Assembly: GCA_035578905.1 (NCBI GenBank)
Contig: JAQJVL010002538.1
Coordinates: forward strand, 29,549 to 93,548
DNA: 64,000 bases
Direction: 5' to 3'
DNA from: Stictocephala bisonia
Taxonomy: Eukaryota > Arthropoda > Insecta > Hemiptera > Membracidae
The number at the start of each line of letters is the position of its first letter. The first letter of the stretch is position 1. Made by a program: the position numbers and the translations under genes. Below are positions 1,230-52,830 of the stretch, one piece after another. The notes beneath the pieces were generated by a model, which did not search any database, had not been told where the DNA came from, and worked only from the letters and a program-made list of their open reading frames with translations.

Positions 1230-2394
1230 TTAACTACCCGACGTCTCAAACATAAATGTTCAGTCATAGAATATCCATCAAGCAGTTTAGTTATAACTGA
1301 TTTATGGACATTTACGGACATGGACATGGATTATATATAACAGATCTCAATAACGTTTGGAAATATATCTCTAAATACTTTCAATTTAGGAAGCTATGAA
1401 AATTAACCTTTAATTTTCTTTAATTCCGTAGCGAATTTGGAATAAAATTGGCATAAACTGCAAAATTGTTGGGTATTCTTCTAGACCCTAATCTTAATTA
1501 GCATAACCATATAATTGTCCTACAAAAACAGCTGCGTTCAGTTTATGAGAGATTTATGCGCTAAATTCAGATGGCATAAGACAAGCCTACTATGGTTCAT
1601 GCCCTTCTTCTTTGGGATAATTCTCCTAATACTATTGCAATCTTCAAGATAAAAAAAGTCTGTACGTACTATTGTCAAATCCAAGAAAATATAACACTGT
1701 AAACGAATTTTTTTCACAAAAGTATTCTAACTTTGAACTCTGCGTATATTTTACATTGTCTTGTGTATATACAAAACAATATACACCTTGTTAGTTTTAG
1801 AAATTCTGTACATAGCTATGAAACTAGAAGTAGAAACAACATTTTATATGTCCCACTAGATTGAATAAATGTGACAGTAGTACTATGGCAGCAGCTTGCT
1901 GTTTTTACAATGAGTTACCTGTAAATATTACAGAACTTCCTACTTTATAATTAAAAAAAGACTTTTAAAGTCTTTGATTATTAGGGCCTTTAATTCTGTC
2001 ACAGCAATTGGATAGCTGATAATTTTAAGTAAGCTAATATTAATGTACATTGACATGCCTATGAGTTTGTACAAAATATATTTTTCTAAATAAAATCTTA
2101 TCATATTATTGAGTGTCATCTTATTAAGTATTCTATGAAACATTGTTTTAACTTGGTGCTGTATCAATACTGGTTAAGTATAAATAACATTGAATAGCAT
2201 GAGAATGTCAGACAGGAAAAAAATACAGTGAGAACTACTCAGGCACTCGAAACTGCATTTTATAGCACGATTTCAACATTTGTTTATAAAGAAGGTTTTT
2301 AATTTATAATTTATGTCAGTGTTATTGTAGTGAAACCCCTCAGTGTTTACTGTAAGTTATATGCCTTATTCGATTTCTACACTCTTGAACCACT
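1230..2394. other. AT-rich intergenic, nothing recognised
   Basis: Only short open frames occur, without recognisable domains or codon structure. I see no repeats shared with the rest of the window. Confidence 0.5.
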
Positions 2395-17639: not shown

Positions 17640-18575
17640 TTGGGTGTATTTTGAAGTACGGGACGAAGTATTGACCCACCCATTCACCCATATATGTCCA
17701 GTAGTATTGACTCGCTCTCCCATCTATACTCGTAAAGTGGTATTGACCTAATAGCCCACCCGTATAAAACCCACTGTAGTATTCACGTATAGAAGTATTG
17801 ACCGACCAGCCCACCCATACTCGTACAGTGGTTTGACCACCAACCCACGCATACTCGTACAGTGGTTTGACCAACTAGCCCACCCATACGCGTACAGTGG
17901 TTTTACCGACCAGGCCACCCATACTCGTACAGTGGTTTGACCGACCAACCCACGCATACTCGTACAGTGGTTTGACCGACCAGCCTACCCATACTCGTAC
18001 AGTGGTTTGACCGACCAACCCACGCATACTCGTACAGTGGTTTGACCACCAACCCACGCATACTCGTACAGTGGTTTGACCAACTAGCCCACCCATACGC
18101 GTACAGTGGTTTTACCGACCAGGCCACCCATACTCGTACAGTGGTTTGACCGACCAACCCACGCATACTCGTACAGTGGTTTGACCGATCAGCCTACCCA
18201 TACTCGTAAAGTGGTTTGACCGACCAGCCCACCCATACTCATACAGTGGGTTGGCCGACCAGCCCTCCCATACTCGTACAGTGGTTTGCCCGACCAGCTC
18301 ACTCATACTCATACAGTGGTTTGGCCGACCAGCCCACCCATACTCGTACAGTGGTTTGACCGACCAGCCCACCTATACTCGTAAAGTGGTTTGGCCGACC
18401 AGCCCACCCATACTCGTACAGTGGTTTGACCGACCAGCCCACCTATACAAATAAAGTGGTTTTTCCGACCAGCCCACCCATACTCGTACAGTGGTTTGAC
18501 CCACCAACGCACCCATACTCGCATAGTGGTTTGATTGACCAGCCCACCCATACACGTACAGTGGTAGTAATAATA
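17640..18575. repeat. Minisatellite, 35-bp period, about 26 units
   Basis: The consensus unit contains ctcgtacagtggtttgaccg followed by accagcccacccata. Units vary at a few positions (cgaccagcc, caactagcc, caccaaccc). A run of about six units is itself repeated with a 209-bp offset (the variant cccatacgcgtacagtggtt at 17882 and 18091), which shows a higher-order duplication. Since 35 is not a multiple of three, long open frames occur in several phases on the minus strand (repeating NHCTSMGGLVGQTTVRVWVG-type peptides). These are repeat shadows, not a gene. The first units (17640-17800) are more diverged and carry ttgacc/attgacc-type variants that resemble the array at 20050-20430. Confidence 0.95.
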
Positions 18576-20644: not shown

Positions 20645-21610
20645 TGTATTTGGTGCTGATTGGAACTAAAGATCAATGTAAAGTCTAATTGTATTTGGTG
20701 ATTGTTTCAACTAACAGTTCTGTCTGTTATTTAAATGTATTTGGTGATTGTTTCAACTAACAGTTATGTCTGTTATCCAAATGTATTTGGTGATTGTTTC
20801 AACTAACAGTTCTGTCTGTTATCTAAATGTATTTGGTGATTGTTTCAACTAACAGTTCTGTCTGTTATCTAAATGTATTTGGTGATTGTTTCAACTAACA
20901 GTTATGTCTGTTATCCAAATGTATTTGGTGATTGTTTCAACTAACAGTTCTGACTGTTATCTAAATGTATTTGGTGATTGTTTCAACTAACAGTTCTGTA
21001 TGTTATCTAAATGTATTTGGCGATTGTTTCAACTAAAAATTCTGTCTGTTATCTAAATGTATTTGGTGATTGTTTCAACTAACAGTTATGTCTGTTATTC
21101 AAATGTATTTGGTGATTGTTTGAACTAACAATTCTGTCTGTTATCTAAATGTATTTGGTGATTGTTTCAACTAACAGTTATGTCTGTTATCTAAATGTAT
21201 TTGGCGATTGTTTCAACGAAAAATTCTGTCTGTTATCTAATTGTATTTGGTGATTGTTTCAACTAACAGTTATGTCTGTTATCTAAATGTATTTGGTGAT
21301 TGTTTCAACTAACAATTCTGTCTGTTATCTAATGTATTTGGTGATTGTTTCAACTAACAGTTATGTCTGTTATCCAAATATATTTGGTAATTGTTTCAAC
21401 TAACAGTTCTGTCTGTTATAAAAATGTATTTGGTGATTGTTTCAACTAAAAGTTCTGTCTGTTATCTAAATGTATTTGGCGATTATTTAAACTAACAGAT
21501 CTATCTGTTATCTAAATGTGTTTGGTGATTGTTTCAACTAAAAGTTCTGTCTGTTATCTAAACGTATTTGGTGATTCTTTCAACCAACAATTCTATCTGT
21601 TATCTAAATT
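20645..21610. repeat. Minisatellite, 46-bp period, about 20 units
   Basis: Each unit reads tgtatttggtgattgtttca followed by actaacagttctgtctgtta and tctaaa. Spacing between successive cagtt.tgtctgttat blocks is 46 bp (for example 20715 and 20761). Alternation of ttct and ttat variants and a few diverged units at both ends suggest unequal exchange. The plus-strand frame at 21516-21707 is an artefact of the array end. Confidence 0.97.
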
Positions 21611-24017: not shown

Positions 24018-24260
24018 TTTTTATATATATATATATATATAAAGGAGAGGCCAACCTCCTTTTTTACCTTACTCTGCCCATTCCTCATAGACTATTGATC
24101 TGTGCGAAGAACTTAATCAGACAGAGTAAGGGGGCGAACCAGTACAGTAGAAGGTGAATATTACTAATAAATCTTCCGGTCTAGGCCGGATTCAACCAGC
24201 GCTATCTCTAACCCAAGCTCAAAGTCCTGATGCCTTAGACCACTCGGCCACCGGCTCACC
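24018..24260 (-). mobile_element. tRNA-Ser/Leu-derived SINE, minus strand
   Basis: Minus strand: gccggtggccgagtggtcta contains the classic Ser/Leu A box TGGCCGAGTGG (complement near 24238-24252), and the B-box-like ggttgaatcc lies at 24188-24197. The body ends in an (AT)n tail at about 24020-24041 on plus. A diverged copy is at 1025-1225. The first 24 bp of the head recur directly after the N gap (30172) because the duplicated segment begins inside this SINE. Confidence 0.8.
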
Positions 24261-24264
24261 CAAT

Positions 24265-24636
24265 TACGAGGTCTAAGGTAAGGTCAAAGGTCTAAAGTGG
24301 GAAATTTTTGGACACCCTCCCTAAAGTCTGGACCTCGCGCCTTCAGATTACCATCTGTTCCCCAAACTGAAAACATTCTTGGGTGGGAAGCAGTTTGGAA
24401 ACGATGAAGAACTGAAAGAAGAAGTGACATCCTGGCTCCTATCTTTGGTGGCTGAAGAGTATAACACCGGCATTGAAAAACTGATTCCTCGGTACAATAA
24501 ATGCTTTGACAACCAAGGCAACTTCATTGAGAAGTAGGCTAGGTTACTGTGAGTATGTAAATAAAGTTCTGTGTTGTTATCTTTCGTTTCTAATTTTTTA
24601 TACCTAAACGTTCTTTACTTTCTGGACGACCCTCGT
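24265..24636 (+). mobile_element. Mariner element, internally deleted, copy 1
   Basis: The 3' terminal inverted repeat is ctttactttctggacgaccc followed by tcgta (24612-24636); the complement begins TACGAGGGTCGTCC, typical of insect mariners. A partial 5' end (TACGAGG-TC) lies at 24265, so most of the element is deleted. The remaining coding part, 24313-24537, encodes the end of the transposase. Confidence 0.8.
24313..24537 (+). pseudogene. mariner transposase C-terminal fragment
   Basis: Read in one frame, the fragment gives HPP, a stop at 24322-24324, then LDLAPSD and YHLFPKLKTF, continuing to a terminal IEK and TAG at 24535-24537. The mariner signature PYSPDLAPSDxHLF is therefore visible with its Tyr codon mutated to TAA; the Asp at 24346-24348 is the third catalytic residue of the DD34D triad. 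The DNA-binding domain and the first two Asp residues are missing, so it cannot transpose. The frame after the stop is undamaged, suggesting moderate age. A second copy lies at 30248-30472 in the duplicated segment. Confidence 0.9.
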
Positions 24637-24879
24637 ATGTACCGGCTCGCCCAACTAATGTACATGTAATAGTTTTGAGGTTAGGTTTCGATGGGATATT
24701 TTGTTTTCGGGTGAAGTTAATGTTAATAACAAACATTACAGTTTGAAGCAAACTTTTCTGCACTTTACATGTTGTTACTACTGTACTTTTTGGTATGAAA
24801 ATGGCATAACAACAACAAACTAACATCACATTTTCAAATACTAGTAGTAACTTTTCATATTTGAGAAATTTTCTTTTTT

Positions 24880-24925
24880 AAATATTCTATCACCTACAAA
24901 CCACATAAACTTTTGTAGTTTGTAG
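24880..24925. repeat. local inverted repeat
   Basis: acctacaaac and gtttgtaggt form a perfect 10-bp stem around accacataaacttttgta. It is also present in copy 2 near 30830-30860, slightly altered (gtttgtagtg). Confidence 0.6.
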
Positions 24926-25479
24926 GTGCACTACTAAACTTTTGCATCATGCTGCACTACTAAAATATGCAGTCTTTTGAGTTTGTTGTGTTGTATTCTT
25001 TAAAACAAGATAAAAATAAGGAAGCTTTGAGTGAGCATTTCCATTGTATTCCAGGAACAAATAAACAAAGTTACAAAATAAGTTTTCAAAGACGTGTACT
25101 CTATTACCACCTACGTATAGTACCTGAGAAACAAACTTACGTTTGTTATCTTATTTTAAATCATCATGTATATTATTTTGTATTTTTGTATGCAGTTGTT
25201 TTATTTATATTAAATGAATAGAAATAAACAACGACAATAATGTAATTTAACAGTTTCTTGTTTATTTTACTACAAACAAATAATACAACTATCAAAACAT
25301 AACACAATATATTTTAATGTAATGCAATCGAATAAAAATATAGTATTAATTAATTTAACATGTATTAATAAGATTCTGATCATCAATACAAGGACGAATA
25401 TAAGTATCGGATAAGTTTGTATGAGCGAGTGTGGTCATTGTTACTAACGAAGGTATCAGTTCCTTATTAATGGCATTTT

Positions 25480-25770
25480 ATTACTACCCCAATAGCCAGG
25501 TCAATTAAGGGACCTAAATCTTAAAGGGGAATCCGAACCACGTAGGTTTTGGTTTGACTGTTGTCTAACTGCCTAACTTGATTCTCACATCTCTCCCTTG
25601 TACAACAACTAAATCCTGAAAACCAACCCACGCGAACGCCTAAGATCAGTGTAATAGTTGCTACATTGATGGAAACCACTTAGCGGAAGCAATTTCAGTG
25701 CCAAGAAGACTGAGATTAGAACCTATGGCCTAAAATCTCTACGGAGGGAGGCACCCCTCAGTATCAGATA
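25480..25770. repeat. diverged dispersed repeat, related to 61510-61760
   Basis: The phrases aatagccaggtcaatta.ggacctaaa.ctta and gaatccgaaccacgtag resemble, at perhaps 60-65 percent identity by eye, the segment near 61520 (aatagccaatatccagggca; gacctagagctttacgtggg). A second copy lies at about 31530-31820 in the duplicated segment. Class unknown. Confidence 0.4.
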
Positions 25771-26069
25771 GCCATATATTGTTTATATATACTGTGTAGA
25801 TAAATTCTTAACAATAAATTACAATTATGAAATAATAAAAAAGAAAAATATTATTAGACTAATATAAACCTACGGACTAAAATAATACAAAATTTAACAA
25901 TGTGGTATTATTAAGTAGAATATAATTATATAAAAATCTAAAATTGTGGAAAGAATGTGTTTGTGAATTACCAATATTGAATTCGTATAGTAATACGCTC
26001 TTAATTTTATTATTAGTGCTGTATTTTAAATTTTAATGAGTATTCATGAGGTGAATATTACTCAAGGTT

Positions 26070-26074
<5 letters not shown>

Positions 26075-26126
<52 letters not shown>
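26075..26126. repeat. (AT)26 microsatellite
   Basis: Pure AT dinucleotide run; the corresponding run in copy 2 (32128-32171) is shorter at about 22 units. Confidence 0.97.
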
Positions 26127-26128
<2 letters not shown>

Positions 26129-27022
26129 TACCTCTTAATCTAATTTTTTTATAGATTATTCACATGACTGGTTCAGTTGTGAAGTGGATAAATAATGTAA
26201 CCGTTTAAGAAGGCTGTTTCGCTTCAAGAAAAAGCAAAAACGTGAATTTCTATTTCAACGATTCGGTTCGTAATGATGATCATATCGTAACGTTTGAAGT
26301 ATAATTTGGTAGACGAATAACTGTTATAGGATATCGAAAGTGTTTTTTTATAAAAATTTAGTATTTTTATAATGTTTTTACAGTTTAAAATATCAAACTT
26401 TAAACGTTATTCTTGACGATTTTAAATTAAAACACGTCATAACAACTTTAGTCTACTAGATTGTACCTTACATAACAATACAGCATTCAATACAACTCAT
26501 TACAATAATAAAAACAAAAAAACGAAATTTAAAATAGAACATCGTGTGTTAGCCCACTAGTGTTAATGTTGCATGTCTAGTAAAGAGCTGTTAACTTCCC
26601 CAGGATAACTTGGTGGTTTGGAAAGTGGCCTCCTCAAAACCGAAACTTAACATATTAAACTCATGCATATTTAACATCGTAACTTGCCAAAGTTTGGTTT
26701 TTGAAGTCACTTTCGTCAAGTTTTGGATTGATTATAATTGGTTTTGATCCTTTGCCCAGCTTTTATTCGAATGGTATTTATAACTTTTTAAATGCCTAGA
26801 AGTGATAATTTGAGGATTAAAATATTAAATCCTAGATTGAATTCAAATTATGATGATATTATTATTATTATTTTATTAAAATCGTAGAGTACGTATTCTT
26901 ATGTTTCAGTAGAGTTAATGACTGATTTATTCGATTTTTTAATGGTTAAATTATCGCAATTGTATTATTTTAGGCCCGAACTCATCGTGATTCTAATGTG
27001 TTGATAAAATAGAATAAAAAAC

Positions 27023-27285
27023 GACGAGGTCCTCAGGAGAGTAGGAGAGAATAGAAGCTTGCAGAAATCAGTTGCTGAAAGAAGAGTTGGTCTTGTTGGC
27101 AATCAAATAAGACATAATGGAATCCTGAACACTATATTTGAGGCTTCGAGGAAGACCACGACTGAGGTACATGGACCAAATCATAAGACATGTGGGTTGT
27201 GAGACCTATGGAGAAATGAAGAGGAAAGCGGGAAGACGTGAGAAGTGGATATTTGCTGCTAATTTGAAAGCTGCCAAGCAATTTT
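27023..27285 (+). pseudogene. LINE ORF2 C-terminal relic, copy 1
   Basis: Frame 1 (27023-27133) reads DEVLRRVGENRSL and then ends RHNGILNTIFE. After a frame change it continues from 27141 as RLRGRPRLRYMDQIIRHVG, then CETYGEMKRKAGRREKW. This is the conserved tail of insect non-LTR retrotransposon ORF2 proteins (xVLxRVGExRSL...GHxxRHxGLL...GRGRPRxxYMDQIxxDVGxxxYxExKRxAxxRxxW). The linker between the two blocks, normally with several Gly/Lys/Arg residues, is deleted, which causes the frame change. No reverse transcriptase core remains. The same deletion is in copy 2, so it predates the duplication. The clade is uncertain. Confidence 0.75.
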
Positions 27286-28784
27286 TTTTATTAATCACTA
27301 TAGAAGAAGAAGAAGATAAGTGATAGTGAGTAATCATTTATGACCTTATATTTTCCTTAATACATAAACCATAAAGCTCATTGGGACCGTTATGTTGTGG
27401 TTAAAATACTTTACTTCAGTCAAAACATATGATCAATGACTTCGTAGTTGGAGTTTAGGCAATACAGGAGAACTTAAACAGTTTTTTCTTACCAAAGTAA
27501 ATTGATTAAGGTAACTGTACTTATCATACACGACAGACGAAAAAGCAATTACGTAGTTGGAAGTTGGACTTTTAAGCAGTACAAAAGTAATTTAAATTTA
27601 AAACTGGGCATAAAATATATGATGGTGTGCCACTTTGGTCAGGGTATATATGTACGAAAGGGGAAGATTCCATTTTTCACATATATCTTATTAAAGTAAA
27701 ATTTTATCTTCACTGCACTTAAACGGTGAACCGTAACAATTCATTTGGATACAGGTCAGTTATGGGAGACTGTTATTTAACAAATGCATATCACAAAGTG
27801 TATATGATTCTGTACTTTTAATATGTGATGGCGTGGAACCGTGATTCAGATACATGCGAGTAGGGAGTGAATTGCCTCAGATTGAGTGAAGGCGCTACCA
27901 TGTAAATGAATATTTATGTGATAAAAGAATTGTTCTGTTGGAAGCTGCTTTAGTTATTATTTTATTGCTGTTTTATTTTTTATTAATATTTATATATTAA
28001 ATTTTTTTCAAGTAACATTACCATTGTCAATGCCGAGCAAATAGTTATTTTACGATATTTAAAAAATTCAGATTCTGTAATACTGTACAAGGGATTATAA
28101 CAACAATTAATTAGTCATTTTATTCTATGACTTTTGAATCCACAAGGATATAAGAACAGGTTTTGTTTTATTTAGGGTTGCTACTGTGGAATTTGGTTCC
28201 CAGGAAAGTTTGACTGTTCTTGCTACAGATATCCTTATTATATTCTTTTTTTTTCTATAAATTCGGTATTAATGATATCATAAGTTTTACAATTACTCGA
28301 TACTGTTTACTATTAGTACCAGTTATCACCCAAACCAAAACCACTATTTATTACATTAATTTTACTTTAAAGTTGCCTCAAGCACATGAATATTTAGAAT
28401 CTAATAAACTCATAATTATCAATATTGATATTAATTATTTATCAACCTCTTATCACTCAATATATATACCTATTTAGGTAACTTAATTTGTTACCTAAAT
28501 AATTGTTTAAATTAATAGTTAAATTTTAGATTGTTCCCTTTTAACAAAAAATAAAATGTGCAAATGAAATGTTTGGAAATAAATCATATGTTTCCCATGT
28601 TTTGTAGATAATTTCATTTTAATTTGTTTTGACTTTTTTTCAAATTTAGGTTACTTTTAATCATATGTGAATTGACAAGGAAAATAGAATAAGGTCCAAA
28701 AAATTACGTCGAATTTAATTAGTTTGAGAAATAGTTTAATTAGTTAAAAGGGTTCTTCGTTCATACAAAAATGTAATTACCAAT

Positions 28785-28832
28785 AGTGTGCGCGCGTGCG
28801 TGTGTGTGCGGGTGCACGCATGTGCGTACAAC
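28785..28832. repeat. alternating GT/GC tract
   Basis: gtgtgcgcgcgtgcgtgtgt continuing gtgcgggtgcacgcatgtgc: alternating purine-pyrimidine, prone to Z-DNA. Identical in copy 2 at about 34902-34950. Confidence 0.8.
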
Positions 28833-30072
28833 ATTTAGAATGTCACCAGAATTTCAGCTCATGCTGTGCATTGGCAAACTCAGTGGTAATGCTGAATTAG
28901 CCTTAGATGGCCCCGACGACCCACGCAAAACCTAAGTTGGCATTGGCCCTTAGGTTGAACTACGCTATAAAAATAACTATGTACCAAACAAAAATAAGAA
29001 AAATTATTAAAACACTTTTGGTGGTAGGTGTACCCAAAAAATAGTTTAAGAAAATTACTTAAATAATTTGTTACATTTTTGTGAAAACTATTTAATTTAT
29101 CGTACTATGTACATTAAATGATAGCTGTACGCAGCAATAGATCTTATCCTTGTTCTTAAGCAGTATTAGTAATATGACAATAAATACATTGCGAGGCTAT
29201 ATTATCTGACAGGGTCATCATTTTGACCTCAGGTTTGGACTTTCGTGTTGAACAAACAAAGACCCTTAAAATGAGGTATAACTCGAGGTAGGCTTACGTT
29301 TAAAATTTATTAAATTGGTTGTACGATCCCATTTTAAATTAGCTATACGAAAAACAAGTAAAATATATCTAAATGTTTGGTATAGAGACATAAACATAGC
29401 TACAAAGTGTCATTGCTTTCCATTAAATTGCTTTAAAAATAATAAATATATCCCAGATTGTTTCCCAGCCCTGTATATCTTCTAGCAGTATTTCAAGGAT
29501 CACACGTCACACAATAGCGTTTCCTGCAGCTTCCACTAGACGTGATGTGAAACTTTGAACACTCCTCGTGAACCTCTCTCTGTACTTTACCATCACTCTA
29601 ATATTGCCCTCATTTTTCTTTTTTTTTTTTAACAAAAGAGCCATTTATATGAATAACCGTTCCAGATGAAGTATTGAAACTCAGCTCACAAAACTGGATA
29701 TGAAAATGGAATTTTTGGCGTTACTTTATAATTTCCATCCCTTCCTTAAAATGACCCACTTGGAGTATAAAGAAAATCATTAATACAAGCATATATAATC
29801 ATGCATATCAAATTAAAGGTCTTTATTAACATTATACAATACTACAAATTTCATTTCCAATGGACGACTAACTTGGAAATGACAGCCATTTGAAGTCTGT
29901 ACTAGATGTCCATTGGTTAAGCATTGTAAAACTGTGAAATAGTTTAATAATCAATCAACCACTTTAGATATCAATCCGAAAAACTTTATTATATTTACAG
30001 ATCACAAAAACCTACTAACAAGGCGTATCAAGTGACTGCTATAATTCCTGATGGATGGTCCACTAGGAGTAA

Positions 30073-30171: not shown

Positions 30172-30247
30172 AGACCACTCGGCCACCGGCTCACCCAATT
30201 ACGAGGTCTAAGGTAAGGTCAAAGGTCTAAAGTGGGAAATTTTTGGA

Positions 30248-30571
30248 CACCCTCCCTAAAGTCTGGACCTCGCGCCTTCAGATTACCATCTGTTCCCCAA
30301 ACTGAAAACATTCTTGGGTGGGAAGCAGTTTGGAAACGATGAAGAACTGAAAGAAGAAGTGACATCCTGGCTCCTATCTTTGGTGGCTGAAGAGTATAAC
30401 ACCGGCATTGAAAAACTGATTCCTCGGTACAATAAATGCTTTGACAACCAAGGCAACTTCATTGAGAAGTAGGCTAGGTTACTGTGAGTATGTAAATAAA
30501 GTTCTGTGTTGTTATCTTTCGTTTCTAATTTTTTATACCTAAACGTTCTTTACTTTCTGGACGACCCTCGT
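30248..30571 (+). pseudogene. mariner transposase C-terminal fragment and 3' TIR, copy 2
   Basis: Same fragment as 24313-24636, including the in-frame TAA in the PPxSPDLAPSD-type motif and the terminal TAG at 30470-30472. The 3' TIR ends at 30571. Confidence 0.9.
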
Positions 30572-31227
30572 ATGTACCGGCTCGCCCAAATAATGTACCT
30601 GTAATAGTTTTGAGGTTAGGTTTCGATGGAATATTTTGTTTTCGGGTGAAGTTAATGTTAATAACAAACATTACAGTTTGGAGCAAACTTTTCTGCACTT
30701 TACATTTTGTTACTACTGTACTTTTTGGTATGAAAATGGCATAACAACATCAAACTAACATCACATTTTCAAATACTAATAGTAACTTTTCATATTTGAG
30801 AAATTTTCGTTTTTAAATATTCTATCACCTACAAACCACATAAACTTTTGTAGTTTGTAGTGCACTACTAAACCTTTGCATCATGCTGTACTACTAAAAT
30901 ATGCAGTCTTTTGAGTTTGTTGTGTTGTATTCTTTAAAACAAGATAAAAATAAGGAAGCTTTGAGTGAGCATTTCCATTGTATTCCAGGAACAAATAAAC
31001 AACCTTACAAAATAAGTTTTCAAAGACGTGTACTCTACTACCACCTGCGTATAGTACCTGAGAATCAAACTTACGTTTGTTATCTTAGTTAAAATCATCA
31101 TGTATATTATTTTACATTTTTATATGCAGTTGTTTTATTTATATTAAATGAATAACAACGACAATAATGCAATTTTACAATTTCTTGTTTATTTTACTAC
31201 AAACAAATAATACAACTATCAAAACGT

Positions 31228-31343
31228 TGTACCTCGCTTGCCAGTAGGTGTGGAGGCCAGGCGTACAGGGCGTATGGGCACATGGCAGTGCCCACTGATG
31301 AGACCTGATGCCGGTCGAAACGCCGCGTGTTGTAGATCTAACA
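31228..31343 (+). mobile_element. 116-bp ribozyme-bearing insertion with 11-bp TSD
   Basis: Copy 1 of the duplicated segment has an empty site (aactatcaaaacataaca, about 25290). Copy 2 has 116 bp of extra, GC-richer sequence between two exact copies of TATCAAAACGT (31217-31227 and 31344-31354). That is the mark of a target-primed or endonuclease-driven insertion and not of random indels. The insert has no coding capacity, no tRNA-like A/B boxes and no poly-A tail. Its core is a full hammerhead ribozyme at 31269-31324, with about 41 nt before and 19 nt after. Known carriers of hammerheads are Penelope-like elements, retrozymes and some satellites; a short non-autonomous relative of one of these is my inference. 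Confidence 0.85.
31269..31324 (+). ncRNA. Hammerhead ribozyme (type III topology)
   Basis: Every consensus element is present in order. Stem III 5' strand GGCG (31269-31272), then U (31273) and cleavage-site A (31274), giving a GUA site. Stem I: TGGGCAC (31275-31281), loop ATGGCA (31282-31287), GTGCCCA (31288-31294), 7 bp without mismatch. Core CTGATGA (31295-31301). Stem II: GACC (31302-31305), loop TGATGCC (31306-31312), GGTC (31313-31316). Core GAA plus the A that pairs with U16.1 (31317-31320). Stem III 3' strand CGCC (31321-31324). Helix III is the open one. Loop I GGCA (31284-31287) is fully complementary to loop II TGCC (31309-31312), as expected of the stabilising loop-loop contact in natural hammerheads. 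Predicted self-cleavage is after 31274. Activity is inferred and not shown. Confidence 0.88.
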
Positions 31344-32122
31344 TATCAAAACGTAATACAAAATATTGTAATGTAATGCAATCGAATAAAAAAATAGTAT
31401 TAATTAATTTAACATTTTATTGATAAGATGTTGATCATCAATACAAGGACGAATATAAGTATCGGATAAGTTTGTATGAGCGAGTGTGGTTATTGTTAAT
31501 AACTTAGAAATCAGTTCCTTACTAATGGAATTTTATTACTATCCCAATAGCCAGGTCAATTAAGGGACCTAAATCTTAAAGGGAAATCCGAACCACGTAG
31601 GTTTTGGTTTGACTGTTGTCTAACTGCCTAACTTGATTCTCACATCTTTCCCTTGTACACCAACCAAATCCTGAAAACCATCCCACGCGGACGCCTAATA
31701 TCAGTGTAATAGTTGCTACATTGATGGAAACCACTTAGCGGAAGCAATTTCAGTACCAAGAAGACTGAGATTAGAACCTATGGCCTACAATATCGACGGA
31801 GGGAGGAGCCCCTCAGTATCAGATAGCCATATATTGTTTATCTATACTGTATAGATAAATTCTTAACAATAAATTACGATCATAAAATAATAAAGAAGAA
31901 AAATATTATTAGACTAATATAAACCTACGGACTAAAAAAATACAAAATTTAACAATGTGGTATTATTAAGTAGAATATAATTATATAAAATTGTGGAAAG
32001 AATGTGTTTGTAAATTACCAATATTGAATTCGTATTATAGTAATACGCTCTTAATTTTATTATTATTAGTGCTGTATTTTAAATTTTAATGAGTATTCAT
32101 GAGGTGAATATTACTCAAGGTT

Positions 32123-32127
<5 letters not shown>

Positions 32128-32171
<44 letters not shown>
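32128..32171. repeat. (AT)22 microsatellite
   Basis: Orthologous position to 26075-26126 in copy 1, about four units shorter. Confidence 0.95.
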
Positions 32172-32173
<2 letters not shown>

Positions 32174-33070
32174 TACCTCTTAATCTAATTTTTTTTATAG
32201 ATTATTCACATGACTGGTTCAGTTGTGAAGTGGATAAATAATGTAACCGTTTAAGAAGGCTGTTTCGCTTCAAGAAAAAGCAAAAACGTGAATTTCTATT
32301 TCAACGATTCGGTTCGTAATGATGATCATATCGTAACGTTTGAAGTATAATTTGGTAGACGTATAACTGTTATAGAATATCGTAAGTGTTTTTTTATAAA
32401 AATTGAGTATTTTTATAATGTTTCTACAGTTTAATATGTCAAACTTTAAACGTTATTCTTGACGATTTTAAATTAAAACTCGTCATAACAACTTTAGTCT
32501 ACTAGATTGTACCTTAGATAACAATACAGCGTTCAATACAACTCATTACAATAATAAAAACAATAAAACGAAATTTAAAATAGAACAGCGTGTGTTGTTA
32601 GCCCTTTGGTGTTAATGTTGCATGTCTAGTAAAGAGCTGTTAACTTCCTCGGCATAACTTGGGGGTTTGGAAAGTGGCCTCCTCAAAACCGAAACTTAAC
32701 ATATTAAACTCATATATATTTAACATCGTAACTGGCCAATGTTTGGTTTTTGAAGTCACTTTCGTCAAGTTTTGGATTGATTATAATTGGTTTTGATCCT
32801 TTGTCCAGCTTTTATTCGAATGGTTTTTATCAGTTTTTAAATGCCTAGAAGTGATACTTTCAGGATTAAAGTATTAAATCCTAGATTGAATTCAAAGTGT
32901 GATGATATTATTATTAGTATTTTACTAAACTCGTAGAGTACGTATTCTTATGTTTCAGTAGAGTTAATGACTTAATTATTAGATTTTTAATGGCTAAATT
33001 ATCGCAGTTGTATTATTTTAGGCCTGAACTCATCGTGATTCTAATGTGTTGATAAAATAGAATGAAAAAC

Positions 33071-33325
33071 GACAAGGTCCTCAGGAGAGTAGGAGATAAT
33101 AGAAGCTTGTAGAAATCAGTTGTTGAAAGAAAAGTTGGTCTTGTTGGCAAACGAATAAGACATAATGGAATCCTGAACACTATATTTGAGGCTTCGAGGA
33201 AGACCACGACTGAGGTACATGGACCAACTCATAAGATATGTGGGTTGTAAGACCTATGGAGAAATGAAGAGGAAAGGGGGGAGACGTGGATATTATCTGC
33301 TGATTTGATAGCTGCCAAGCAATCT
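33071..33325 (+). pseudogene. LINE ORF2 C-terminal relic, copy 2
   Basis: Same relic as 27023-27285 with further decay: the second block has lost bases after the MKRK-equivalent (aggaaaggggggagacgtgg), so the open frame no longer continues to the end. The shared linker deletion shows that it was already dead before the copies separated. Confidence 0.75.
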
Positions 33326-34306
33326 TTGGATTAATCACTATAGAAGAAGAAGAAGATAAAATAGTGAGTAATCATTTATGACCTTATGTTTTCCTTAATA
33401 CATAAAACATAGAGCTCATTGAGACCGTTATATTATGGTTAAAATACTTTACTTCAGTCAAAACATATGATCAATGACTACGTAGTTGGAGTTTAGGCAA
33501 TATGAAATGAAAAAAAAAAGAAAATGAAATAATATAGGATATACATATAGGAGAGCTTAAACAGTTTTCCTTACCAAAGTAAATTGATTAAGGTAACTGT
33601 ACTTAGCATACACGACAGACGAAAAAGCAATTACGTAGTTGGAAGTTGGATTTTCAAGCAGTACAAAAGAAATTTGAATTCAGCACTGGGCATAAAATAT
33701 ATATGATGGTGTGCCACTTTGGTCAGGGTATATATGTACGAAAGGGGAAGATTCCATTTTTCACATATATCTTATTAAAGTACAATTTTATCTTCACTGC
33801 ACTTAAACGGCGAACCGTAACAATTCATTTGGATACAGATCAGTTATGGGGGACTGTTATTTAACAAATGCATATCACCAAAGTTTATATGATTCTGTAC
33901 TTTTAATATGTGACGGCGTGGAACCGTGATTCAGGTACATGCGAGTAGGGAGTGAATTGCCTCAGATTGAGTGAAGGCGCTATCAGTATAAATGAATATT
34001 TATGTGATAAAAGAATTGTTCTGTTGGAAGCAGCTTAGTTATTATTTTATTGCTGTTTATTTTTTATTAATATTTATATATATATTCACTTTTTTCATGT
34101 AACATTACCATTGATAATGCTGAGTAATACAAGGGATTATAACAACAATTAGTAATTTTATTCTATAAGTTACTCATTTTATTCTATGACTTTTGAATCC
34201 ACAAGGATAGAACAGGTTTTGTTTTATTTAGGGTTGCTACTATGGAATTTGGTTTCCAGGAAAGTTTGACTGTTCTTGCTACAGATATCCTTATTATATT
34301 CGTATT

Positions 34307-34308
<2 letters not shown>

Positions 34309-34369
<61 letters not shown>
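34309..34369. repeat. 61-nt poly-T run
   Basis: The same site in copy 1 (about 28246-28255) has only about 10 T. Confidence 0.95.
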
Positions 34370-34372
<3 letters not shown>

Positions 34373-35724
34373 ATAAATTCAGTATTAAAGATATCAGAAG
34401 TTTTACAATTACTCGATACTGTTTACTAATTTTACCAGTTATCACCCAAACCAAAACCACTATTTATTACATTAATTTTACTTTAAAGTTGCCTCAAGCA
34501 CATGAATATTTAGAATCTAATAAACTCATAATTATCAATATTGATATTAATTATTTATCAACCTCTTATCACTCAATATATATACCTATTTAGGTAACTT
34601 AATTTGTTACCTAAATAATTGTTTAAATTAATAGTTAAATTTTAGATTGTTCCCTTTTAACAAAAAATAAAATGTGCAAATGAAATGTTTGGAAATAAAT
34701 CATATGTTTCCCATGTTTTGTAGATAATTTCATTTTAATTTGTTTTGAGTTTTTTTCAAATTTAGGTTACTTTTAATCATATGTGAATTGACAAGGAAAA
34801 TAGAATAAGGTCCAAAAAATTACGTCGAATTTAATTAGTTTGAGAAATAGTTTAATTAGTTAAAAGGGTTCTTCGTTCATACAAAAATGTAATTACCAAT
34901 AGTGTGCGCGCGTGCGTGTGTGTGCGGGTGCACGCATGTGCGTACAACATTTAGAATGTCACCAGAATTTCAGCTCATGCTGTGCATTGGCAAACTCAGT
35001 GGTAATGCTGAATTAGCCTTAGATGGCCCCGACGACCCACGCAAAACCTAAGTTGGCATTGGCCCTTAGGTTGAACTGCGCTATAAAAATAACTATGTAC
35101 CAAACAAAAATAAGAAAAATTATTAAAACACTTTTGGTGGTAGGTGTACCCAAAATATAGTTTAAGAAAATTACTTAAATAATTTGTTACATTTTTGTGA
35201 AAACTATTTAATTTATCGTACTATGTACATTAAATGATAGCTGTACGCAGCAATAGATCTTATCCTTGTTCTTAAGCAGTATTAGTAATATGACAATAAA
35301 TTCATTGAGAGGCTATATTATCTGACAGAGTCATCCTTTTGATCTCAGGTTTGGACTTTCGTGTTGAACAAACAAAGACCCTTAAAATGAGGTATAACTC
35401 GAGGTAGGCTTACGTTTAAAATTTATTAAATTGGATGTACGATCCCATTTTAAATTAGCTATACGAAAAACAAGTAAAATATATCTAAATGTTTGGTATA
35501 GAGACATAAACATAGCTACAAAGTGTCATTGCTTCCCATTAAATTGCTTTAAAAATAATAAATATATTCCAGATTGTTTCCCAGCCCTGTATATCTTCTA
35601 GCAGTATTTCAAGGATCACACGTCACACAATAGTGTTTCCTGCAGCTTCCACTAGACGTGATGTGAAACTTTGAACACTCCTCGTGAACCTCTCTCTCAT
35701 ACCTTACCATGACTCTAAAATTAC

Positions 35725-35727
<3 letters not shown>

Positions 35728-35769
<42 letters not shown>
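35728..35769. repeat. about 42-nt poly-T run
   Basis: The same site in copy 1 (about 29620) has a T run roughly half as long. The 70-residue lysine-rich minus frame across it is an artefact. Confidence 0.95.
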
Positions 35770-35775
<6 letters not shown>

Positions 35776-36208
35776 AGAGCCACTTATATGAATAACCGTT
35801 TCAGAAGAAGCATTGAAATTTAGCACACAAAACAGGATATAAAATGGAATTTTTTGTGTAACTATAATTTCTATCCTTTCCTTAAAATAAACCACTTGGA
35901 GTATAAAGAACATCATTAATACAAGTATATATAATTATGCTTATCAAATTAAAGGTCTTTATTAACATAATACAATACCACAAATTTCGTCTCCAATGGA
36001 CGACTAACTCGGAAATGAAAGCCATTTGAAGTCTGTACTAGATTTCCATTGGCTAAGCATTGTAAAACTGTGAAATAGTTTAATAATCAATCAACCACTT
36101 TAGATATCAATCCGAAAAACTTTATTACATTTACATATCACAAAAACCTACTAACAAGGCGTATCAAGTGACTGCTATAATTCCTGATGGATGGTCCACT
36201 AGGAGTAA

Positions 36209-41396: not shown

Positions 41397-44051
41397 CTAT
41401 TCTACATGACCGCCAGCCACATATTCCTTGACGCTGTAATGGCATTTATCAATGAGGTATGTTTTTATCTGACGCCGGAACTTAGTGCTATCGGACTCCA
41501 TCCTCAGTGCAATTGGCAAGCTATTGAAGAGTTTTACTCCATTGTATAGAAGGTTACGTTTAAAAAAAGAAGTAGAATGAGACGGAATGTTAATCATGTG
41601 GTTATTGCGGAGGTTGTAAATATGATTAGAAGCTGTTGAAAAATGGTGGAAATTTTGTTTAACAAAGCTCAGGGTTTCTAGAATAAAAATTGAAGGGAAG
41701 GTAAGAATGTTAAACGTTCGGAAGTATTCACGGCAAGAGTCACGCCTTTTTAATGAAAATATCACCCTTATTGCTTTTTTTTGCAATCTAAACAAGAATA
41801 GCGTCCTCCGAGACTCCCCACCCCACACGGGAACCGCATACACAAGATGTGGATACAGCAATCCGTAGTAGGCAGTGAGAAGGACCTCAGGGCCCACCGT
41901 CCCTGCCAGATTCCTCAATATGAAGATTCCAGTGCTCATTTTATTGGATACATTCATAATATGTGGATAAAAACTCAATTTATCGTCTATAGTTAGACCC
42001 AGGAATCTCACAGTCTCCGATGATTCTAGTTCTGTGTCTCCAAGGAAAACACTGAACCCAGAGTCAAAATCAGACGAATTTTGACTTAGGTGAAATTTAA
42101 TGAGATGTGATTTTAATGAATTGACTTTAAGTGAATGATCCTCAAACCATTGAAGGAGGTTATTAGATTCTAGAAGAGCATTGATTTCCAATTGTTCTCG
42201 AGAAGGAGCGGACAGTGAGAGGGAAGTGTCATCAGCAAAAAGGCAAACTTGGGCAGTTTTTACTGTCGTTGGAAGATTGTTAATAAAAATTAAAAACATA
42301 ATTGGGCCGAGTATAGACCCCTGGGGGACGCCACTAGTTACTGTGGTCACAGCAGAGGAGTGACGCAGTTGAAAACCCGCGGTGTTCACTGCGGATATTT
42401 CCACGAACTGCCTCCGACCCTGAAGATAAGACGAAAACCATTCTAGAGCATGGCCTCGTATTCCGATGTGAACCATTTTATTTAACAACAAGGTATGGTT
42501 GACTGTATCGAAGGCCTTGCTTAAATCAAAAAATAGGCCAGCACAGTGGTTTTTCCTATCCAATCCTCTAACTACATTATGTAGTAGAGAGAATATAGCA
42601 TTGGTCGTTGATTTTGTCTTCACAAAGCCAAATTGGTCTTCACATAGAATGCTGTGTTTCTCTAAAAAACTACTCAATCTGTTTAGAGTTATTTTTTCAA
42701 AGATTTTCGATATGGTGGGGAGAATGGAAACTGGCCTGTAGTTGTCACACTTAAACTTGTTGCCTTTCTTCAAGATAGGTTTTACAATGGCAAGCTTCAG
42801 TGCGTCAGGAAACAGACCACTTACAAAAGACTCGTTTATCAAGTAACTTATAGGGCCAGCTAGACACTCGTTCATTTCTTTTATCAAAATGTCAGGTATT
42901 TCGTCATTACCAGCTGATTTCTTACTTTTTAATGATTTTATTGCACAGCTTACTTCTTCCTCTGACGTTGGTAATAAAAAAAGGGATTCTCTGCTTATTG
43001 ACGTGCCATTCTGGATTATCCTGTGTGGTGAACATATCTGAGATGTTTTCCTACCTTCTCCAACATTATTGAAAAAACTGCTGAGTATGTTAGCAATGTC
43101 ACCAGGGTCGTAAACTAGCTCACCATCATCTTTTTCAATGCAAAACTCTGATATTGAATTTGTTTTCTTCGACGGTGCTTTATTTTCATTTATTATACCC
43201 CATATAGCTTTCGATTTCTGATCTGACCTTTCAATTCTTTTTTTTATATTCTCAGCCTTGGCCTGATGTATTGCTTTCCTGTACTTGTTTTTTGTTCTAA
43301 GATAATACTGCCTCATAAAGTTATCAGAAGGGAGATCTTTCGTTGTTATATACAGATCAGTCACCTTCTCTTTTAGCTCAAATATTTCTTTGCTTAGTTT
43401 AATTCTATGAGATTTCATATCTTTGATCTTAAGCAGCTTTTTTGGGAACGATACTTCAAAGTGTTGCTTTAACTGGGCATAAAATGCATCAAACTTATCA
43501 TTGAAATCAGCTGGTTTATACATATCGTTCCACTCATCTTTATTAAGCAAATTTCTGAAAAGCTGCTTGTTTTCTTTAGAGAAAATTCTACCATATCTGG
43601 ATTTCAATCGTAAAGGCTTCGTAACTGGTTGATGGGGGATGTCAGCTGTCTGTGCATGGTGGTCTGACAACGCTGACACTACCACTTCAGTCTTTATTGA
43701 AATATCGTCAGAGAATATATGGTCTATTAGAGTTCGAGACTGTAACCTCTCTCTAGTGTACGAGGTGACTAGGTTCTGTAAACCAAAACTGGCCATAATG
43801 GTAACAAATCTATGTCTTAAAAACGAGTCCCTTGCCAAATCAATGTTAAAATCCCCCACCACAATGGTCGTACAGTTCTTCCTCATATTCCTTTCAAGGC
43901 AATTTGACAGTGTTTCAAAAAATATATCATGCTGGTTTGTAGGTGGCCTATAACCCACCACCAGCAGCAGCTTCTTACCCTGTCTTGACTGCAGTAATGC
44001 CGCAGCAAGCTCACAGTAGCCTTCGATACAAAATTCTGTCACATCTATCAC
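41397..44051 (-). CDS. LINE ORF2: endonuclease (partial) and reverse transcriptase
   Basis: 884 codons open from an in-frame GTG. Residues 30-140 are the C-terminal half of an apurinic-type endonuclease: VVGDFNID (64-71), LIDHIF (108-113), SDHHAQT (129-135). Reverse transcriptase spans about 375-690: NYRPVSILPTISKIFEKI (437-454), DLSKAFDTVNH (509-519), SGVPQGSILGP (573-583) and the catalytic LFADDTSL (604-611), then the thumb (FLGLTIDDKLSF, 683-694) and a C-terminal region without a zinc finger. The protein would nick target DNA and copy the element RNA onto it. The true frame extends upstream: beyond a TGA at 44073-44075 it continues with NMGGVGIW, LSEHSLKSPE and LAHQNIRGLASKIEQLNSF, the endonuclease N-terminus. 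So this is one stop short of a full ORF2. The clade is CR1/Jockey-like; finer placement needs a tree. Confidence 0.95.
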   Translation of the reverse strand: MIDVTEFCIEGYCELAAALLQSRQGKKLLLVVGYRPPTNQHDIFFETLSNCLERNMRKNCTTIVVGDFNIDLARDSFLRHRFVTIMASFGLQNLVTSYTRERLQSRTLIDHIFSDDISIKTEVVVSALSDHHAQTADIPHQPVTKPLRLKSRYGRIFSKENKQLFRNLLNKDEWNDMYKPADFNDKFDAFYAQLKQHFEVSFPKKLLKIKDMKSHRIKLSKEIFELKEKVTDLYITTKDLPSDNFMRQYYLRTKNKYRKAIHQAKAENIKKRIERSDQKSKAIWGIINENKAPSKKTNSISEFCIEKDDGELVYDPGDIANILSSFFNNVGEGRKTSQICSPHRIIQNGTSISRESLFLLPTSEEEVSCAIKSLKSKKSAGNDEIPDILIKEMNECLAGPISYLINESFVSGLFPDALKLAIVKPILKKGNKFKCDNYRPVSILPTISKIFEKITLNRLSSFLEKHSILCEDQFGFVKTKSTTNAIFSLLHNVVRGLDRKNHCAGLFFDLSKAFDTVNHTLLLNKMVHIGIRGHALEWFSSYLQGRRQFVEISAVNTAGFQLRHSSAVTTVTSGVPQGSILGPIMFLIFINNLPTTVKTAQVCLFADDTSLSLSAPSREQLEINALLESNNLLQWFEDHSLKVNSLKSHLIKFHLSQNSSDFDSGFSVFLGDTELESSETVRFLGLTIDDKLSFYPHIMNVSNKMSTGIFILRNLAGTVGPEVLLTAYYGLLYPHLVYAVPVWGGESRRTLFLFRLQKKAIRVIFSLKRRDSCREYFRTFNILTFPSIFILETLSFVKQNFHHFSTASNHIYNLRNNHMINIPSHSTSFFKRNLLYNGVKLFNSLPIALRMESDSTKFRRQIKTYLIDKCHYSVKEYVAGGHVE

Positions 44052-44075
44052 TTCGGAAGTTACTTCAGCTTTTCA

Positions 44076-51091: not shown

Positions 51092-51497
51092 ATATTCAAT
51101 ATTAACCATCAGAGGTTAGAGAGGTATCAGAGGTATTCAATATTACCATCAGAGTTAGAGAGGTATCAGAGGAATTCAATATTACCATCAGAGGTTAGAC
51201 AGGTATCATAGGTATTCAATATTACCATCAGAGGTTAGAGCGGTATCGGAGGAATTCAATATTACCATCACAGGTTAGAGAGGTATCAGAGGAATTCAAT
51301 ATTACCATCAGAGGTTATAGAGGTATCAGATATATTCAATATTACCATCAGAGGTTAGAGAGGTATCAGAGGAATTCAATATTACCATCAAAGGTTAGAT
51401 AGGTATTAGAGATATTCAATATTACCATCAGAGGTTAGAGAGGTAATCAGAGGAATTCAATATTACCATCAGAGGTTAGAGAGGTATTGAATATTAC
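51092..51497. repeat. Minisatellite, 40-bp period, about 10 units
   Basis: The unit reads attcaatattaccatcagag followed by gttagagaggtatcagagga; units are highly similar, with small indels. Confidence 0.96.
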
Positions 51498-51699: not shown

Positions 51700-52830
51700 A
51701 AGGGGATGGACTTATTGTCGGAGGAAGCCTAATTGATCCCCAAGGAGGGACTTATTGTCGGGGGGAAGCCAAAAATTGATGCCAAGGATGGATTTTTTTG
51801 GTCGGGGGGGAAAGCCTAATTGATGCCAGAGGAGGGGAATTTTTGTCGGAGGAAAAAGCCAAATTTGATGCCAGAGGATGGACTTATTGCCCGGGGGGAA
51901 CCCCAAATTTTGATGCCAGGGGAGGGACTTATTGTCGGAGGAAGCCAAATTTGATGCCAAAAGGATGGACTTATTGCGGGGGGGAAGGGCCTAATTGATG
52001 CCAGAGGAGGGACTTAATGTGGGAAAGAAGCCAAATTAAATGCCAGAGGTTGGCCCCTTTTTTGTCGGGGGGAAGCCAAATTGATGCCAGAGGAGGGGTT
52101 TAAATGTGGGAGGAAGCCAAATTTTGATCCAGGGGGATGGACTTATTGTCGGGGGGAACCCCTAATTGATGCCAGAGGTTTGGATTTTAATTGTCGGGGG
52201 AACCCAATTGATGCCAGGGGAGGGAAAACCTTATTGTCGGGGGAAACCCCAAATTGATGCCAGGGGAGGGAAACTTAATGCGGGGGATGCCAAATTTTAT
52301 GCCAAGGAGGGAAACTTAATGTGGGAGGAAGCCAAATTTGATCCCCAGGGAGGACTTTTGTCGGAGGAAAAGCCAAATTGATGCAAAAAGGAGGGACTTA
52401 ATGTCGGGAAAAAAAGCCCCTAATTGATGCCAGAGGATGGACTTACTTTTCCGGAGGAAGCCTAATTGATGCCAAAGGTTTTGGAAACTTTTTGTCGGGG
52501 AACCCTAATTAAATCCCAAAGGGGAAATGGACTTAATGTCGGGGGGAAAGCCAAATTTGTTTCCAAAAGGATGGACTTATTTTCGGGGGGAAGCCTAATT
52601 GATGCCAAAAAGGAGGGACTTATTGTCGGGGGAAAGCTAATTGTTTGCCAGGGGAAAGGGAAACTTTTTTCCCCCAGAGGAACCAAATTTGTTTCCAGGG
52701 GATAAAAATTTAATTGTCGGAGGAAGCCAAATTTGATGCCAGAGGAGGGAAAATTTATTGTCGGAGGAAGCCAAATTTTGATCCCCCAGGGGGATGGACT
52801 TTTTTTGGCCCGGGGAAGCCAAATTTACTT
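51700..52830. repeat. Minisatellite, about 40-bp period, about 28 units, noisy
   Basis: The underlying unit reads gatgccagaggagggactta followed by ttgtcggaggaagccaaatt. Units vary in length mainly because A, G, C or T runs are lengthened (gggggg, aaaaa, cccc), a sequencing-type error pattern. Open frames here on both strands are repeat shadows. Confidence 0.93.

What the first reader, a model, noticed from the sequence alone, without database searches (positions are those of the whole stretch)
31269..31324. Complete consensus hammerhead ribozyme in an insect-like genome
Seen directly: the CTGATGA and GAAA cores, stems I (7 bp), II (4 bp) and III (4 bp plus the A15.1-U16.1 pair) without mismatch, and an allowed GUA cleavage triplet before 31275. 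Helix III is the open one (type III topology). Animal hammerheads in retroelements are, to my knowledge, mostly type I with a short stem III, so this topology is itself notable. Chance occurrence of all core positions plus three perfect stems in 64 kb is very unlikely.
Basis: partly seen in the sequence, partly recalled or inferred. Interest (0 to 1): 0.92.

Follow-up and report, generated by a model that had tools for sequence, protein, structure and literature searches.

The report
Self-cutting RNA in a jumping element
A small RNA motif that should cut itself, found in an insect-like genome, belongs to a non-coding mobile element that probably carries such motifs on both strands and appears to be pasted in by the genome's own Penelope-type retrotransposons.

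Summary
The hammerhead at window 31269-31324 is real: exact type III fold, intact core, no match in 60 random windows. It scores 33.8 bits on Rfam RF00008, below the 48.5-bit cut-off. It lies in a 116-bp insertion (31228-31343) with an 11-bp target duplication; the empty site stands at 25290-25298. One genome search gave 46 matches, a lower bound. The full element is a ~860-nt non-coding unit. Its minus strand carries a second hammerhead candidate with covarying stem III, but isolated RNA prefers another fold. Many copies are head-to-head inverted arms. Target duplications of 9-15 bp occur in 26 of 34 loci tested; one end with a ~35-nt 'tail' and one without in 19 of 19 copies scored. A Penelope-like (PLE) copy in the same genome has the same geometry. 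Inner arm ends cluster at the predicted cleavage site (6 of 28 loci, 1.4 expected, post hoc), suggesting cleavage in vivo. Best reading: a PLE-mobilised, retrozyme-like element with type III hammerheads, probably on both strands. Nothing was tested in vitro.

The parts
31228..31343 (+). Solo insertion of the element: 5'-truncated, one arm, ending at the tailless end (..TAGATCTAACA)
   Evidence: Flanked by an 11-bp direct repeat; absent from the paralogous site at 25290-25298
31269..31324 (+). Type III hammerhead ribozyme (HHR+)
   Evidence: RF00008 33.8 bits; lone fold = hammerhead; pair counts over 34 sequences of the family
31274..31275 (+). Predicted cleavage site GUA^U
   Evidence: Hammerhead geometry; inner arm ends of 6 of 28 loci lie within +1..+22 of the equivalent site
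31217..31227 (+). Left target-site duplication TATCAAAACGT
31344..31354 (+). Right target-site duplication TATCAAAACGT
25290..25298 (+). Empty site (single TATCAAAAC) in the other copy of the local duplication

Best explanation
The window holds a truncated copy of a low-copy, non-coding retroelement with a unit of about 860 nt. Plus RNA, read through more than one unit, is cut by its type III hammerhead, so some template RNAs begin at the cleavage site. The GIY-YIG/reverse-transcriptase protein of the genome's Penelope-like elements cuts both strands of a target and primes one cDNA at each of two adjacent sites on the element RNA (CTAAC, and CTTAACGT about 35 nt downstream). The two cDNAs are joined head to head, giving inverted arms with one tailed and one tailless end and a ~10-bp target duplication. 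A second hammerhead on the minus strand would process antisense RNA. SHOWN by sequence: both motifs, stem covariation, arm geometry, ends, target duplications, empty site, and a PLE copy with the same geometry. INFERRED: ribozyme activity, the PLE protein as the enzyme, RNA circles, and any antisense RNA step.
For: HHR+ (34 sequences, 26 distinct): covariation score 0.189 vs 0.145 shuffled, 0 of 500; 29 of 34 keep core and triplet. HHR- (29 sequences, 24 distinct): 5 of 10 stem III pairs change on both sides; 24 such cells vs 8.8 shuffled and score 0.206 vs 0.117, both 0 of 500; sliding the partner drops the score to 0.069 or less. Descriptor scan: 8 of 14 element loci have matches, all of them HHR+ or HHR-; none in 1500 random element-sized sequences. 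Target duplications of 9 bp or more in 26 of 34 loci vs 2.3% of 664 control flank pairs. One tailed and one tailless end in 19 of 19 two-armed copies scored (read). PLE copy L055: palindrome, one end about 33-37 nt longer than the other, 11-bp target duplication. Neighbouring PLE endonuclease hits within 6 kb, copied: 15 minus-plus, 0 plus-minus, 23 same-strand. PMC11167929 (parts 1-2 of 4 read): PLE reverse transcription starts at two adjacent sites, giving a 30-40-bp tail, with both strands cut and extended. PMC3846280 (passages): PLEs with inverted pLTRs, 31-bp tail on one, 8-10-bp target duplications. In L025 both inner arms start exactly at the cleavage site.
Against: No cleavage, RNA or circle data. 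The one PLE family examined shares no significant sequence with the element, so how its enzyme would recognise the element RNA is unknown; a search for other elements sharing the tail did not complete by the server. Pfam on that PLE ORF listed only RVT_1, not GIY-YIG, although the genome search put GIY-YIG over its cut-off there (31.8 vs 22.6 bits). Every Rfam score is below the gathering score. Two of five covariation measures do not beat shuffles for either motif: pairs with both-side changes (HHR- 5 vs 4.2, HHR+ 2 vs 2.8) and pair types (12 vs 12.2, 9 vs 9.7); the sequences are related, which shuffles ignore. HHR- gets no Rfam hit at E up to 1, its hammerhead fold is 7.8 kcal/mol less stable than a competing hairpin, and 10 of 29 copies have a changed core or triplet letter. 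Cleavage-site clustering is post hoc on hand-read coordinates. 8 of 34 loci show no target duplication of 9 bp or more, among them the non-inverted, longer-than-unit copy L037.
Confidence: 0.77

Rival explanations
1. The inserts are DNA copies of a viroid-like or delta-like circular RNA that replicates RNA-to-RNA with ribozymes in both polarities; PLE insertion is only how it leaves fossils.
For: Hammerhead motifs on both strands with covarying stems; no long ORF in three copies checked; very stable folds, z -9.2 and -7.1 against 20 shuffles each; termite and toad delta-like RNAs carry type III hammerheads in both polarities (PMC7936874, PMC7761336, passages).
Against: No RNA evidence; the arms point to plus-strand templates; HHR- may not be active; divergent genomic subfamilies look like a long-resident element.
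Confidence: 0.25
2. An ordinary DNA transposon or foldback/MITE with long terminal inverted repeats that happen to hold a hammerhead.
For: Inverted arms and target duplications of similar size.
Against: Arms end at variable inner points; outer ends differ by a ~35-nt tail; copies run over more than one unit (L025, L033, L035, L037); single-arm copies with target duplications (window, L016).
Confidence: 0.03
3. The minus-strand motif is not a ribozyme but a conserved hairpin used on either strand.
For: More stable alternative fold; GU vs AC counts give no strand preference, 11 to 16; 10 of 29 copies have a changed core or triplet letter, five of them G12 to A.
Against: 19 of 29 copies keep all core positions in register with a cleavable triplet; the family-level core difference is at the free position 7 (A 17, T 12); 0 of 1500 random elements match.
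Confidence: 0.37
4. The palindromes arise by self-priming (snapback) rather than by two cDNAs.
For: Arm lengths agree to within 45 nt in 13 of 19 two-armed copies vs 4.3 by permutation; PMC3846280 proposes self-priming, on an antisense template, for PLE palindromes.
Against: One tailed and one tailless end in 19 of 19; arms of L010 (87%) and L014 (94.7%) are each less alike than they are to an arm of another locus; in PLE L055 and in L033 one arm holds an extra full unit.
Confidence: 0.2

Closest known systems
Metazoan non-LTR retrozymes (PMC7229834, passages)
   Same: Non-autonomous, non-coding, hammerhead-bearing repeats; longer target duplications than plant retrozymes; PLEs proposed there as the likely mobiliser
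   Different: Those have type I hammerheads, 150-450-bp units and tandem arrays; here type III, ~860 nt, inverted arms, a second hammerhead candidate on the other strand
Plant LTR retrozymes (PMC4918200; only the listing was seen, details from PMC7229834)
   Same: Type III hammerhead; circRNAs of 600-800 nt in plants, a unit of ~860 nt here
   Different: LTRs with PBS/PPT and 4-bp target duplications; likely mobilised by Gypsy elements
Penelope-like elements (PMC11167929 parts 1-2; PMC3846280 passages)
   Same: Inverted arms, tail on one end, target duplications of similar size, hammerhead in the element RNA
   Different: PLEs code for RT and GIY-YIG; their hammerhead is a minimal type I variant; no significant sequence shared with the family tested
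Delta-like RNAs with type III hammerheads, and isolated hammerheads in termite and fly genomes (PMC7936874, passages)
   Same: Type III, both polarities, insects, GGC/GCC-type loop complementarity (29 of 34 HHR+ copies here)
   Different: Those are 1.5-1.7 kb with a delta-antigen ORF and longer helices; the termite genomic motifs were described as isolated
Carnation CarSV retroviroid (listing of PMC10019309 seen; features recalled)
   Same: Viroid-like RNA with hammerheads on both strands and a DNA counterpart (recalled)
   Different: 275 nt, plant, DNA linked to a pararetrovirus (recalled)

Membership tests
Type III hammerhead (HHR+) | Core CUGANGA..GAA, NUH triplet, three stems, helix III open | tested here: met
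   Window copy; 29 of 34 family sequences keep core and triplet
Type III hammerhead (HHR+) | Rfam gathering score | tested here: not met
   33.8 vs 48.5 bits in the window; 32.8-36.0 in the other loci searched. Filed on fold, core and covariation, not on Rfam
Type III hammerhead (HHR+) | Self-cleavage | not testable with these tools
   Indirect only: arm ends near the cleavage site
Type III hammerhead (HHR-) | Core and three stems | tested here: inconclusive
   Core and triplet in 19 of 29, stems I and III met, stem II only 2 bp; competing fold; no Rfam hit
Retrozyme, broad sense | Non-autonomous retroelement with hammerhead and no coding capacity | tested here: met
   No long ORF in three copies; retro-insertion marks
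Retrozyme, broad sense | Circular RNA intermediate | not testable with these tools
   No RNA data
Metazoan retrozyme as described | Type I hammerhead, 150-450-bp tandem units | tested here: not met
   Type III, ~860 nt
Plant LTR retrozyme | LTR/PBS/PPT and 4-bp target duplication | tested here: not met
   Target duplications of 9-15 bp; PBS and PPT were not looked for
Penelope-like element (autonomous) | RT plus GIY-YIG ORF | tested here: not met
   No such ORF in three copies
PLE mobilisation signature | Tail of 30-40 bp on one end, inverted arms, target duplication | tested here: met
   19 of 19 scored and 26 of 34; same in PLE L055
Delta-like virus | Delta-antigen ORF, 1.5-1.7 kb | tested here: not met
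   Unit 857-873 nt; longest stop-to-stop frame 147 aa in one arm of L025, broken in the other arm; no comparison with delta antigens was run
Viroid (Avsunviroidae) | Autonomous RNA replication without a DNA form | tested here: not met
   DNA copies in the genome; RNA replication not testable

The most novel reading that the evidence does not exclude
An insect hosts a viroid-like RNA with hammerheads in both polarities that replicates through RNA circles and is copied into the germline by Penelope-like elements: an animal counterpart of the plant retroviroid, and a link between viroids, delta-like agents and PLEs.
Probability: 0.22. Interest if true: 0.93.

Novelty: new variant of a known kind. 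Interest (0 to 1): 0.74.

Why it matters
PMC7229834 proposed PLEs as a strong candidate to mobilise animal retrozymes (passage); here the PLE tail, inverted arms and target duplications sit on a hammerhead element without similarity to the PLE examined. It also offers sequence evidence that hammerhead cleavage sets the 5' end of some PLE-type templates; PMC11167929 found cleavage not needed in vitro and no RNA-seq reads ending at the site. Hammerheads on both strands of a genomic animal element would link retrozymes to viroid-like replication. All of this can be tested with standard transcription and RNA-end assays.

Tried and rejected
Rejected: a chance hammerhead; a DNA transposon or MITE; one-template snapback as the general mechanism. 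My first idea, snapback from the stem I hairpin (note), was dropped after L010, L014, L033 and L055. Coding capacity of the unit: nothing found in three copies. Two viral-contig pattern scans with exact patterns: 0 matches each. GU/AC strand test: 37:11 for HHR+, 11:16 and inconclusive for HHR-. tRNA scan of the window: none. Rfam on the PLE loci found no hammerhead at E up to 5 and a loose type III descriptor found none in L054; the PLE's minimal type I candidate was read by eye. Literature searches for a type III or two-strand hammerhead retroelement in insects and for PLE structure; no listed title or abstract start describes this element, but only open-licence papers are held. My note says 28 of 34 target duplications; a recount gives 26 of 34, which stands. 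In one search one inner end of L033 was typed as +11 where one search gives +9; neither count changes.

Full report
THE OBSERVATION. The 56-nt hammerhead at 31269-31324 is exactly as written. Rfam places it in RF00008 at 33.8 bits, E 0.0019 for 64 kb, below the curated 48.5 bits; in gathering mode the window has no hit at all. Alone it folds into the hammerhead as its minimum-energy structure (z -1.85, 12 of 200 shuffles as stable), though a longer 121-nt stretch is predicted to fold otherwise. A descriptor scan (stem I at least 5, II at least 4, III at least 5 bp, full core) finds only this site in the window and none in 60 first-order random windows, both strands.

WHAT IT SITS IN. The window carries a local duplication, 24237-30072 and 30172-36208, 93-98% alike in its pieces. 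Only the second copy has a 116-bp insert, 31228-31343, flanked by TATCAAAACGT on both sides; the first copy has the empty site at 25290-25298. No other piece of the element and no PLE piece was found in the window by BLAST. Searching the window's own 1.68-Gb assembly with the insert gave 46 matches (40 of 109 candidates scored), and with a body piece 43 matches (40 of 47 candidates). Both are lower bounds. I fetched 45 further loci (L009-L053). Some are copies of each other (L026/L027, L018/L019, the two copies in L035; L028 and L033 share a right flank), so loci are not all independent.

ANATOMY. The unit from one hammerhead to the next is 857 nt (L025) to 873 nt (L035). It has no long ORF in three copies (the longest stop-to-stop frame, 147 aa, lies in one arm of L025 and is broken in the other) and a very stable fold: z -7.5 for a 743-nt stretch of L035 plus strand, -9.2 and -7.1 for L025 plus and minus (20 shuffles each). 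Many copies are head-to-head inverted arms, minus arm first, with the hammerhead reading outward and the arms meeting at variable inner points. L037 is a non-inverted copy longer than one unit. L026/L027 look like a 5' inversion. L041-L049 and L051-L053 align to the young copies in pieces at about 66-94%, so the family has old branches.

ENDS. In 19 of 19 two-armed copies that I scored (L009-L015, L022-L025, L029, L031, L033-L036, L038, L048), one outer end stops at CTAAC(A) or its variants and the other runs ~35 nt further to CTTAACGT or its variants (read by eye; L014's tailed arm has a small deletion before the tail). Not scored: L040, whose minus arm ends inside the body, and loci with an incomplete or unclear arm (L017-L019, L026, L027, L032, L042, L043, L053). 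Of 34 loci tested for a target duplication, including single-arm ones, 26 have a shared string of 9-15 bp at the two outer ends; L019, L020, L021, L026, L028, L037, L039 and L050 do not. Control flank pairs reach 9 bp in 2.3% of 664. The shared string may include a few terminal element bases, and those of L032 and L048 are simple sequence. The old fragments L041-L047, L049 and L051-L053 were not tested.

THE MACHINERY. A GIY-YIG family search of the genome scored 150 of 4772 candidates; 16 of the 150 lie in open frames of 802-810 aa, with a tandem array at 2634-bp spacing (C1027). Neighbours within 6 kb lie minus-plus 15 times, plus-minus 0 times, same-strand 23 times (I copied the contigs with more than one hit). 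One array was read (L054): an intact 801-aa ORF with RVT_1 over its cut-off and relatives including an Anolis carolinensis protein at 29% identity. Pfam did not list GIY-YIG for this ORF, although the genome search scored it over its cut-off there. An inverted copy (L055) has palindromic arms, one end about 33-37 nt longer than the other, and an 11-bp target duplication. Published PLE work describes a 30-40-bp optional tail between two adjacent reverse-transcription start sites and cutting of both strands (PMC11167929, parts 1-2 of 4 read), and inverted pLTRs with a 31-bp tail and 8-10-bp duplications (PMC3846280, passages). The element therefore has the PLE insertion signature but no significant similarity to the PLE that I examined.

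WHAT THE HAMMERHEAD DOES. If plus RNA is cut by HHR+, template RNAs start at U1.1 and full-length cDNAs should end there. Inner arm ends of 6 of 28 loci (L025, L032, L033, L035, L036, L037) fall within +1..+22 of the cleavage site, against 1.4 expected, binomial p 0.002. The 28 are 27 of the 45 fetched loci plus the window; the rest had unclear inner ends, were duplicates or were old fragments. L025 is exact on both arms; L036 is ambiguous because stem I is itself near-palindromic. The test is post hoc and coordinates were read by hand.

THE MINUS STRAND. About 190 nt from HHR+ on the unit (from the coordinates), the minus strand reads CAAAAAUAGUA^GGGUGGCCACCCCUGANGAGGGACCCGAAACUAUUUUUG: all hammerhead core positions, stem III of up to 10 bp, stem I of 4 bp, stem II of only 2 bp. 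I extracted 32 sequences (one arm per locus except L042) and aligned 29 (L040, L044 and L046 dropped as truncated or lacking the 3' half). Stem III covaries: 5 of 10 pairs change on both sides, 24 such cells vs 8.8 in shuffles and score 0.206 vs 0.117, both 0 of 500; sliding the partner destroys it. Two other measures do not exceed shuffles (pairs with both-side changes 5 vs 4.2; pair types 12 vs 12.2). Core and triplet are intact in 19 of 29, and position 7, the free one, is A in 17 and T in 12; five copies have G12 to A. Against it: no Rfam hit at E up to 1, the hammerhead fold is 7.8 kcal/mol less stable than a rival hairpin, and the GU/AC count shows no strand preference. I hold it a hammerhead with probability about 0.63. 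For HHR+, 34 sequences give 94.5% paired cells, an A-U to U-A swap in stem I in 10 of 26 distinct rows, covariation score 0.189 vs 0.145 (0 of 500) and 11 both-side cells vs 5.7 (4 of 500), but 2 vs 2.8 pairs and 9 vs 9.7 pair types; GU 37 vs AC 11; core and triplet intact in 29 of 34; loop 1 GGC and loop 2 GCC both present in 29 of 34.

HOW THE ARMS FORM. Two cDNAs joined head to head explain the two kinds of end. Arms of L010 and L014 appear to come from different templates: each is closer to an arm of another locus than to its partner. In PLE L055 and in L033 one arm holds an extra unit. Partner arms were nearest relatives in only 15 of 30 tests (15 two-armed loci), though the lengths compared differ. 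Yet arm lengths agree within 45 nt in 13 of 19 (4.3 by permutation). That is unexplained; a coupled dimeric enzyme or annealing of self-complementary cDNA ends are guesses. PMC3846280 instead proposes self-priming on an antisense template.

COMPARISON AND NOVELTY. The element fits retrozymes in the broad sense but neither described kind: not plant LTR retrozymes (target duplication size) and not metazoan ones (type I, smaller units). Type III hammerheads in both polarities are known in delta-like RNAs, and isolated genomic ones in termites and flies (PMC7936874, passages). I found no description of a PLE-type animal element with them in the open-licence library (searches named in Tried and rejected). 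I rate it a new variant of a known kind.

Noticed in passing
window 24237-30072 and 30172-36208: Local tandem duplication, 93-98% alike in pieces; only the second copy holds the hammerhead insert.
   Followed up: partly
window 41397-44072 (-): LINE reverse transcriptase ORF, 891 aa, RVT_1 and endonuclease; best named relatives are leafhoppers.
   Followed up: partly
window 17798-18565, 20684-21609, 51094-51487, 51704-52637: Minisatellite arrays with units of 35, 46, 40 and 43 bp.
   Followed up: no
L054, L055 (G000 C1027, C1902): Tandem and inverted PLE arrays, units 99.9% alike within L054; candidate minimal type I hammerhead CTGATGATGGTCTTTCGAGACCGAAA by eye.
   Followed up: partly
L025 2485-2541: 57-nt spacer between the inner arms is a copy of flanking DNA at 3548-3604.
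   Followed up: partly
L012 ~2000-2010 (+), L025 ~3112-3122 (-), L035 ~1521-1531 (+): A second minus-strand motif of the unit, AGGGCTGAYGA, is kept in three families; no matching GAAA was seen by eye in L025 and L035. Role unknown.
   Followed up: no
L040 1787: Minus arm's outer end lies inside the body, not at either usual end, though a target duplication is present.
   Followed up: no
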